Part shown: positions 45,094 to 47,153 of the stretch, piece after piece
How positions within the stretch are numbered: the stretch's first letter is position 1
Layout of the letters: each line of letters starts with the position of its first letter
Assembly (NCBI RefSeq): GCF_007625075.1
Contig: NZ_QMIE01000002.1
Span: forward strand, 62,001-126,000
Direction: 5' to 3'
DNA: 64,000 nucleotides
DNA from: Oceanidesulfovibrio indonesiensis
Lineage (GTDB): Bacteria > Desulfobacterota > Desulfovibrionia > Desulfovibrionales > Desulfovibrionaceae
Notes under the pieces: model-generated
Told to the model about the DNA's origin: nothing
What the model saw: only the letters and a program-made list of their open reading frames with translations
Database searches by the model: none
Program-made: the position numbers and the translations under genes

Positions 45094-45955
45094 TTAGTTT
45101 TGCATCAATTCGAGCACCGTCAAGGAGCTTGGAATGCTGTCATACAGGGAATGCGAGGCTGCCATGACATCCATACCCAGGGCCCAGTGGCCGCCTTCGG
45201 CTCCGGGCAGAATGAGGATGTCGATCATGGCAACAGTGGCTCCCTTGGTGTAGGGCCGCACCCATATCGTTTGGCCCGGTGCGTTCTGCCTGCCGGAAAA
45301 GCCCCTGCCTGGCCCGCTTCCCAGCAGAATATCCAGCGCGTCAGGGTTTCTTTGCAGAAAGGATTCCTCGTACGCGGCGCCCCACAGGCTCAGACCGATC
45401 ACAATGGTGGCGTCTTGCCGGGCTGTTTGCGCCGCTTTGAGTATTTTCGGTTCAAACCTGGCGTAAGTCGGATCGCTCAGGCCCTTTTCGTATGGAAACA
45501 CAATCAACGCAACAGTCGCGGAATTTTTTACCAGCATCTCCACGCGGGCATCGCGGGAAAGGCTCAACCATTCCGGAGGAAGCGACAGACCGAGCTTCTC
45601 CAGCCAGGCAATTTCTTCAGAATTAATAAGGCCGTAGTCATAACCAAGAGCCTCATACAGCGCAAAGATGTTTCTGGGCGCATATGCGGAAGCCGGCTCT
45701 CCCGCCAGGGACAGGAACTCGAATCCTCCCCCCGAGTCTCAGCGAATTTTCCGGACCCGCCGTTTGCTTCAGGTCGTGCATGAGCGTGGCCCGCCGGACA
45801 ACGCCGCCGATTGTCGTGCTGCCTCATGTCGGACAGGGGTGGAAGTTGCCGAAGGTGTTCGCCGTATACAGGATGCTGATAGCGGGTTGAGCCGCGATGC
45901 TGTCGGCTGCGGAGCAGAGCCATATCAAGCAAAAGGCGAGAACAATCCTGGGCAT
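45094..45955 (-). CDS. UshA-like selenoprotein with in-frame UGA, frameshifted at a G6 tract
   Basis: GGAGG precedes the ATG at 45955 by 5 nt. A signal peptide is followed by ILYTANTFGNFHPCPT-UGA-GSTTIGGVVRR. The UGA is codon 44 (45824-45826), and the frame stays open for 40 codons after it, in place of CPxCG-like family motifs of UshA/metallophosphatase-related proteins. A hairpin follows the UGA. The frame then breaks at six Gs (45728-45733); with five Gs it continues LGGGFEFLSLAGEP...to the stop at 45094, about 286 residues in all. The downstream half contains ALYEALGYDYGLINSEE. I infer a periplasmic selenoprotein of the UshA-like type that works with thioredoxin, CcdA and rhodanese. Dual interruption could also mean a pseudogene. 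Confidence 0.7.
45797..45823 (-). promoter_or_regulatory. Candidate bacterial SECIS hairpin
   Basis: Eight bases after the UGA, GACAA pairs with TTGTC around a nine-base loop (TCGGCGGCG). The position directly 3' of the UGA, in the coding region, is where bacterial SECIS elements occur. The stem is short (5 bp), so structure prediction is needed. Confidence 0.5.
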
Positions 45956-45967
45956 CATTGCCTCCAG

Positions 45968-46669
45968 CTACGAGAAAAACGGTTGTACGACGAAATACAG
46001 GCCCAGCAGTCCGACTATAACTCCCGCCACACGACGGAACACCATGCCGCCGCGCTGCCATGCGCTGTTGGCGAGAAAGCGTTTGACCAGGGCCGTTGAA
46101 CTGCCGGCTATGGCGATGGGAATGCAGTGTCCGATGCCGAAAAGCACGATGAAGATGATGCCAGTAAGGACTTCGCCCTGCACGGTGATGATGGCAAGAA
46201 TCGGCGCGATAAAACCGAACGTGCACGAACCGGACAGCACCCCGTAGGCCAGACCGAGAAAGAACGCGCCAGAAAGCCCCTTGACCTTGAGCCTGGCCAT
46301 GAGCCCGCCCGACATGGAGCAGCGGCCGACTCCCAGCATGTCCAGCGCGATCCAGAGCAGTATGACTCCCACGACGATGGTCCAGTAGGGACCGACATCG
46401 CCGAGCATGCGGCCCAGCAGCGAGCAGATCACGCCGATGGCCGCGATGGTAATGAACAGTCCGGTGGTGAACAGCACGGCGTACAGCGTGGCCTTGCGTC
46501 CTTCGACCTCGCGTTCCTGCCCGGCGACATATCCGACGATGAGCGGAATGGAGGCGATATGGCAGGGGCTGAAGAGCACGCTCACCGCACCCCAGAGAAA
46601 GCAGCCGAGCGCGCCAAGAAGCAGGCCGCTGCCTATCCAGGAGTTGATTACGAGGAAAACCTGGTCCAC
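45968..46669 (-). CDS. CcdA/DsbD-like thiol electron transporter
   Basis: The 233-residue membrane protein has six helices and the paired cysteines of CcdA in FSPCHIAS and GSCTFGFIAP. It would move reducing equivalents from cytoplasmic thioredoxin to periplasmic thiol proteins. The GTG start lies 4 nt after the thioredoxin stop and the gene ends 12 nt before the UshA-like gene. Its likely clients are the adjacent anchored thioredoxin, rhodanese and selenoprotein. Confidence 0.88.
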   Translation of the reverse strand: MDQVFLVINSWIGSGLLLGALGCFLWGAVSVLFSPCHIASIPLIVGYVAGQEREVEGRKATLYAVLFTTGLFITIAAIGVICSLLGRMLGDVGPYWTIVVGVILLWIALDMLGVGRCSMSGGLMARLKVKGLSGAFFLGLAYGVLSGSCTFGFIAPILAIITVQGEVLTGIIFIVLFGIGHCIPIAIAGSSTALVKRFLANSAWQRGGMVFRRVAGVIVGLLGLYFVVQPFFS

Positions 46670-46673
46670 GCGG

Positions 46674-47153
46674 TTACTCCACGCCCAATTCTATCAGCTT
46701 GGCCTCGATGGCGTCCTTGTCCATAAAGCCTTCATGGCGCATGCGCTCCTTGCCCTCGGCATCGTAGAAAATCTGTGTGGGAATGGCTCGCAGACCGAAC
46801 TCCGGTGTGACGTCCGGATTTTCCCAGACATCGATGAAAACAATGGCGGCGCGGCCTTCGTACTCCTGAGACAACTCCTTGAGGATCGGCGCCATCATTC
46901 TGCAGGGAATGCAGGACTTGGCGCCAAGATCCACCATGGTGACCATGCCCGGCACAGGCACCTGCTGCGGTTCTCCGGAAATCAATTCCGCAGCAGAGGG
47001 TGTGCTCGCGTTCGAAGACGACGCTGCCGGTGCGGCTGCTTCTGTTGACGGAGCCGTTACCGGTGCCGGGGCGCCGGCATCCGTCTGCATGTAGAACGCA
47101 GCGCCGCCCAGCGCGAAGACGGCGAGTGCCAAGACGATGATGACCTTTTTCAT
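46674..47153 (-). CDS. Membrane-anchored periplasmic thioredoxin
   Basis: The 159-residue protein starts MKKVIIVLALAVFALGG, an uncleaved or cleaved signal anchor. An Ala/Ser/Pro-rich linker (about residues 28-65) and a thioredoxin fold with active site KSCIPCRMM follow. cis-Pro is in RAIPTQIFY. AGGAG precedes ATG 47153. It is translationally close to ccdA, a standard reductant pair. Confidence 0.88.
   Translation of the reverse strand: MKKVIIVLALAVFALGGAAFYMQTDAGAPAPVTAPSTEAAAPAASSSNASTPSAAELISGEPQQVPVPGMVTMVDLGAKSCIPCRMMAPILKELSQEYEGRAAIVFIDVWENPDVTPEFGLRAIPTQIFYDAEGKERMRHEGFMDKDAIEAKLIELGVE

What the first reader, a model, noticed from the sequence alone, without database searches (positions are those of the whole stretch)
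45094..45955. Probable UGA-encoded selenoprotein in a periplasmic redox operon
The minus-strand gene between ccdA and the rhodanese reads a signal peptide then FGNFHPCPT-UGA-GSTTIGG, and stays open for 40 codons beyond the UGA. A GACAA/TTGTC hairpin follows 8 nt after the UGA, where bacterial SECIS elements sit. CPxU-G looks like a Cys-Sec redox motif. The neighbours (thioredoxin, CcdA, rhodanese, MauE) are all thiol-redox proteins. A standard gene caller would miss this gene or report only its C-terminal part.
Basis: partly seen in the sequence, partly recalled or inferred. Interest (0 to 1): 0.85.

Follow-up and report, generated by a model that had tools for sequence, protein, structure and literature searches.

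The report
Known UshA-like selenoprotein, frameshifted copy

Summary
The joined protein scores 246.5 bits (cut-off 140).

101 of 149 Desulfovibrionaceae genomes carry the family. The UGA position holds Sec (88 distinct sequences) or Cys (about 20). All 17 Sec-form genomes tested have selB; 8 of 12 Cys-only ones lack it. This genome has tRNA-Sec, selA and selB; selD was not found in its draft assembly.

It is a hairpin 28 nt after the UGA whose loop falls on an Arg-Arg codon pair, fixed as CGG-[C/A]GG in 80 of 88 Sec forms against 5 of 19 Cys forms. The window copy keeps it.

It is a recent pseudogene or a sequencing error; unresolved. An intact canonical copy lies elsewhere in the genome.

The fold is that of 5'-nucleotidase/SoxB, apparently without the metal ligands, so a CxxU redox role beside CcdA-thioredoxin is likely but unproven.

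The parts
45094..45958 (-). UshA-like selenoprotein family 2 gene (NF049981), whole span in two frames; start ATG 45955 (GGAGG at 45965-45961, 5 nt upstream) or 45958
45824..45826 (-). in-frame UGA, read as selenocysteine (CPT-U)
   Evidence: Sec or Cys aligned here in all clear homologues but none other seen
45783..45805 (-). SECIS hairpin with loop GGC at 45795-45793, 28 nt after the UGA
   Evidence: conserved and covarying in 80 Sec relatives; found in the window by a model built without it, 40.4 bits; folds so once the first 9-15 nt are left out
45728..45733 (-). G6 run with the +1 frameshift between the two coding pieces
   Evidence: removal of one G gives a gapless alignment to relatives
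45968..46669 (-). CcdA/DsbD transmembrane protein
   Evidence: PF02683; homologues 52-80% identical in many genomes of the family
46674..47153 (-). exported thioredoxin (CIPC)
   Evidence: PF00085
44600..45079 (-). exported rhodanese-domain protein
   Evidence: PF00581
44114..44593 (-). MauE-type membrane protein
   Evidence: PF07291
47442..47672 (-). small MTH895/ArsE-type thioredoxin, possibly part of the same cluster
   Evidence: TIGR00412 above cut-off, PF13192
47691..49154 (-). ArsP-type permease, possibly part of the same cluster
   Evidence: PF03773

Best explanation
The gene is an accessory paralogue of UshA-like selenoprotein family 2 (NF049981). UGA 45826-45824 is read as selenocysteine by SelB bound to a hairpin whose GGC loop lies 28 nt downstream. 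The exported protein has the catalytic-domain fold of 5'-nucleotidase/SoxB, but appears to have lost metal-binding residues and carries a Cys-Pro-Thr-Sec motif close to where they were. It most likely acts as a thiol/selenol oxidoreductase kept reduced by the CcdA-thioredoxin relay encoded next to it, on a sulfur carrier or disulfide in the periplasm (inferred). As assembled, this copy is broken by a +1 frameshift at a G6 run: a very recent pseudogene or a sequencing error. The intact canonical copy on contig 4 would supply the family function. Shown: family, Sec/Cys exchange, SECIS constraint, machinery except selD, frameshift, fold of the family. Inferred: redox activity, partners, substrate.
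For: NF049981 246.5 bits joined, 159.8 for the C-terminal piece alone, cut-off 140. Family in 101 of 149 genomes, mostly with exactly one internal TGA. Position is Sec in 88 and Cys in about 20 distinct sequences. selB in 17 of 17 Sec-form genomes, 4 of 12 Cys-only ones. tRNA-Sec, selB, selA in this genome. Arg-Arg codons CGG[C/A]GG in 80 of 88 Sec forms, 8% expected from their own Arg usage, 5 of 19 in Cys forms, Fisher p 2e-8; Sec-to-Arg spacing constant in 88 of 88. Covariation: one pair kept in 80 of 80 with six pair types. Window copy keeps the element and most family-conserved residues on both sides of the frameshift. Intact second copy C4:103632-104417 with one TGA. Fold: model pLDDT 88, SoxB/CD73/UshA at Z 19-21.
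Against: As assembled the reading frame is broken. selD was not found in this assembly. The covariance-model score of the window copy (40.4) is also reached by two Cys copies, so the score alone does not prove a working SECIS, and two stem positions of the window hairpin are mismatched. The redox mechanism rests on motif, neighbours and loss of metal ligands, not on any assay; most family members lie away from redox genes, beside release factor 2 and DapA/DapF.
Confidence: 0.9

Rival explanations
1. The frameshift is a sequencing or assembly error in a G6 run, and the gene is an intact, expressed selenoprotein gene.
For: Single lesion in a homopolymer; no other stop; conserved residues kept throughout; codon use favours the correct frame after the shift.
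Against: At least six other G or C runs of six or more lie in intact long ORFs of the window.
Confidence: 0.45
2. The frameshift is real and the window copy is a very recent pseudogene; the canonical copy on contig 4 does the work.
For: An intact family copy exists in the same genome; the genus-mate G010 has one family copy and no match to this CcdA, so the cassette is dispensable.
Against: No second lesion and high conservation, so it would have to be very young.
Confidence: 0.48
3. The frameshift is programmed (+1 ribosomal or transcriptional slippage at GGGGGGAGG), giving a doubly recoded gene.
For: G-rich slippery run; both sides conserved.
Against: Other family members match the profile in one frame; only one relative has a long G run near the site.
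Confidence: 0.04
4. The UGA is an ordinary stop and the gene a truncated pseudogene with no recoding.
For: The copy is broken by a frameshift anyway, and selD was not found in the assembly.
Against: The same UGA recurs in 88 distinct homologues with an RNA-level constraint and with selB present.
Confidence: 0.02
5. The protein is a metal-dependent phosphohydrolase or SoxB-like thiohydrolase, in which Sec serves another role than thiol redox.
For: Fold matches SoxB and 5'-nucleotidases at Z about 20.
Against: The DxH and GD metal motifs are replaced in the alignment to a solved 5'-nucleotidase (weak score); Sec exchanges with Cys in a CxxC motif.
Confidence: 0.2

Closest known systems
UshA-like (seleno)protein family 2, NCBIfam NF049981 (PMC13188914: motif CxxU, WP_420705249.1)
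   Same: Whole-length profile match over cut-off once the frames are joined; CxxU motif; Sec/Cys exchange
   Different: Accessory copy in a Trx-CcdA-rhodanese-MauE cluster rather than the usual release factor 2/MinD/DapA neighbourhood; +1 frameshift
UshA-like (seleno)protein, NCBIfam NF041198 (motif CxU; PMC2398784, PMC9312934)
   Same: Same N-terminal region and general fold type; Sec near the same place
   Different: 33 bits against a cut-off of 275; CxxU instead of CxU; about half the length
SoxB / CD73 / UshA metallophosphoesterase fold
   Same: Catalytic-domain fold, Z 19-21 over about 230 residues
   Different: No second domain in the family protein; metal motifs DxH and GD not kept; CxxU/C motif added
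Tso (three-selenoprotein operon) of Haft and Tolstoy, as cited in PMC13188914
   Same: CcdA and rhodanese resemble parts of TsoB
   Different: 49.5 and 43.7 bits against a cut-off of 805; no Tso protein over cut-off among the window proteins scanned

Membership tests
NF049981 UshA-like (seleno)protein family 2 | profile score above the curated cut-off of 140 bits | tested here: met
   246.5 bits joined; 159.8 for the C-terminal piece alone; found in the genome search
NF049981 UshA-like (seleno)protein family 2 | CxxU or CxxC motif followed by GG..RR | tested here: met
   CPTUGSTTIGGVVRRA
NF049981 UshA-like (seleno)protein family 2 | one continuous reading frame apart from the UGA | tested here: not met
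   +1 frameshift at 45733-45728; hence a member by descent, not shown to be a working gene
bacterial selenoprotein gene | homologues with Cys or Sec at the UGA | tested here: met
[quoted passage not shown]
   loop GGC, 4 bp plus further pairs after one mismatch, 28 nt, -10.3 kcal/mol
bacterial selenoprotein gene | tRNA-Sec, SelA and SelB in the genome | tested here: met
bacterial selenoprotein gene | SelD in the genome | tested here: inconclusive
   not found in a draft of 330 contigs; the genus-mate G010 has it
bacterial selenoprotein gene | selenium in the purified protein | not testable with these tools
   needs 75Se labelling or mass spectrometry
NF041198 UshA-like (CxU) | profile score above 275 bits | tested here: not met
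   33.1 bits
5'-nucleotidase / UshA (as enzyme) | catalytic-domain fold | tested here: met
   Z 19-21 for a family member's model, not for the window copy itself
5'-nucleotidase / UshA (as enzyme) | metal-binding DxH and GD motifs | tested here: not met
   NxY and G-aromatic-E in the alignment to 2z1a and 5h7w (low score, so moderate weight)
Tso operon | TsoB over its cut-off | tested here: not met
   49.5 and 43.7 bits against 805

The most novel reading that the evidence does not exclude
A nucleotidase/SoxB fold has been converted into a metal-free selenol redox protein that takes electrons from CcdA and thioredoxin to handle persulfide or disulfide carriers in the periplasm of Desulfovibrionales, with accessory paralogues that travel with cytochrome c maturation and metal-efflux genes.
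Probability: 0.3. Interest if true: 0.6.

Novelty: new member of a known kind. Interest (0 to 1): 0.33.

Why it matters
The family is named, but no function is given in the papers read. The survey shows that it is widespread in Desulfovibrionaceae (about two thirds of sampled genomes), describes its SECIS at the RNA level, and points, through accessory copies beside CcdA, CcmF and rhodanese, to a testable thiol-redox role for a phosphatase fold. The window gene is also a caution: a gene with a true recoded codon can carry an ordinary frameshift as well.

Tried and rejected
Plasmid-borne relatives: none by tblastn. Close relatives of the window copy in genome contigs: none. A 12-sequence alignment as query: too divergent. 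Rfam scan of the window: no match at gathering thresholds. selD: searched by family at two cut-offs and with the genus-mate's protein, not found; an attempt to explain this by an assembly gap near typA gave no firm answer. Pfam has no family for this protein. Haft and Tolstoy 2025 on selenoprotein neighbourhoods is not held. First HMM seed mixed in wrong-strand translations and was rebuilt. A whole-51-nt minimum-free-energy fold of the window does not show the family hairpin and is no better than shuffles. The two alternative structures evaluated on the 51-nt element are not used, as one was written one column off.

Full report
What is in the window. On the minus strand, in order: an ArsP-type permease, a small MTH895/ArsE-type thioredoxin, a gap of about 290 bases, a periplasmic thioredoxin, CcdA, the gene of interest, an exported rhodanese and a MauE protein. 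The gene starts at ATG 45955 (GGAGG five bases upstream) or 45958. It encodes a signal peptide, ISILYTANTFGNFHPCPT, a UGA at 45826-45824, then GSTTIGGVVRRATLMHDLKQ.

What it is. The joined translation matches NCBIfam NF049981, 'UshA-like (seleno)protein family 2', with 246.5 bits over nearly the whole profile (cut-off 140). Each piece matches on its own: 2.5e-19 for the N-terminal piece, 8e-47 for the C-terminal one. The related family NF041198 reaches only 33 bits against 275. The 2026 review PMC13188914 lists NF049981 with motif CxxU as 'GenBank annotated'; a search for the accession found no other paper in the library. Older papers (PMC2398784, PMC9312934) describe the other UshA-like family, motif CxU.

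The frameshift. After residue G77 (counted from the first ATG) the frame that matches the family moves by +1, within or just after the run GGGGGGAGG that starts at 45733. Removal of one G gives LRLGGGFEF, which aligns without a gap to LVLGGGYEF of relative L067. There is no other lesion, the family's conserved residues are kept on both sides, and codon use favours the correct frame after the shift. At least six other G or C runs of six or more lie in intact long ORFs, which speaks mildly against general homopolymer error. I cannot decide between a sequencing error and a recent pseudogene.

Selenocysteine. A search of 149 genomes of the same family found the protein in 101 (36 of 44 genera), and in 162 of 297 genomes of the class. 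The residue at the UGA is Sec in 88 distinct sequences and Cys in about 20. All 17 Sec-form genomes tested have selB; of 12 Cys-only genomes 8 lack it. The window's genome has tRNA-Sec, selB and selA. No SelD was found, although the genus-mate G010 has one that is itself a selenoprotein. The assembly has 330 contigs, so a gap is possible, but this remains open.

SECIS. In Sec forms the two arginine codons ten codons after the Sec are CGG CGG or CGG AGG in 80 of 88. The genes' own Arg usage predicts 8%, and Cys forms show it in 5 of 19. The spacing is exactly ten codons in 88 of 88 Sec forms but in 15 of 19 Cys forms. Related sequences are not independent, so the p-value of 2e-8 overstates the contrast; the constancy across 36 genera does not depend on it. 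These codons form the tip of a hairpin CUGGCCC-GGC-GGGCCAG. Over 80 sequences 90.5% of its cells pair, against 32-49% when slid, and one pair is kept in all 80 with six pair types. The window copy has GUC CGG CGG GCC at that place. A model built without it finds it at E 3.4e-9, next best 0.23; two Cys copies score as high, as relics of Sec ancestors or through shared coding sequence, so the score alone is no proof. When the first 9-15 bases of the element are left out, as under a ribosome, the window RNA folds into this hairpin. It meets the bSECIS rules quoted in PMC13188914.

Context. Of 78 loci examined, 70 lie in one conserved neighbourhood: apolipoprotein N-acyltransferase, release factor 2, a MinD-like ATPase, this gene, then HU, DapA or DapF. 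The intact copy in this genome (contig 4, L020) and the single copy of G010 are of that kind. The window copy is an accessory one. Other accessory copies lie beside ccmF, a TPR protein, a heavy-metal P-type ATPase and an M23 peptidase, in L085 also with rhodanese and MauE, or, as Cys forms, in clusters of pilin-like genes (recognised by eye from the N-terminal motif). The window copy groups with the latter with modest support (0.858). The Trx-CcdA pair is common in the family, sometimes with rhodanese and MauE, but none of the other 29 loci examined has this gene between CcdA and rhodanese.

Structure and mechanism. A member from Pseudodesulfovibrio pelocollis with 25 relatives gave a confident model (pLDDT 88, pTM 0.89). 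It matches the catalytic domain of SoxB, CD73 and UshA (Z 19-21). Sequence alignment to a 5'-nucleotidase places NxY where the enzyme has the metal-binding DxH, and G-aromatic-E where it has GD (weak scores). CxxU lies in a low-confidence loop (residues 18-28) just after this first motif. From this, from the Cys exchange and from the redox neighbours I infer a thiol/selenol redox protein rather than a phosphatase. Which residues bind metal in UshA is established knowledge, not tested here. The window copy itself was not modelled.

Verdict. The selenoprotein call is right, the family is known, the SECIS is elsewhere than proposed, and this copy is frameshifted as assembled. Interest is modest. 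The open question is the function of the family.

Noticed in passing
L055, L057, L064, L065, L066, L123, L124, L125: In one genus (g25) a Cys form and a Sec form of the same protein lie in tandem, Cys form first; a natural pair for comparing Sec with Cys function.
   Followed up: partly
L020:2342-6403 and 68 of 78 loci: The canonical selenoprotein gene lies within 5 kb of the gene of release factor 2, which terminates at UGA; the neighbourhood is conserved.
   Followed up: partly
L082, L085, L086: Accessory Sec copies next to ccmF, a TPR protein and a heavy-metal P-type ATPase, with a MerR regulator in L082 and relaxase-like or transposase-like genes nearby.
   Followed up: partly
L098, L101, L103, L105: Accessory Cys copies inside clusters of pilin-like genes with an AAA ATPase carrying a peptidoglycan-binding domain.
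   Followed up: no
L185:4001-4769 (Salidesulfovibrio brasiliensis JCM 12178): The canonical gene of this draft genome also loses frame shortly after the Sec motif, so frameshifts in this family may reflect draft-sequence errors.
   Followed up: no
whole genome of the window (G000): selD was not found although tRNA-Sec, selA and selB are present; the genus-mate has a Sec-containing SelD between a LysR-type regulator gene and typA.
   Followed up: partly
L127:6180-6443 (minus): A Trx-CcdA-rhodanese-MauE operon is followed by a longer UshA-like protein with PACGG instead of CPxU.
   Followed up: no
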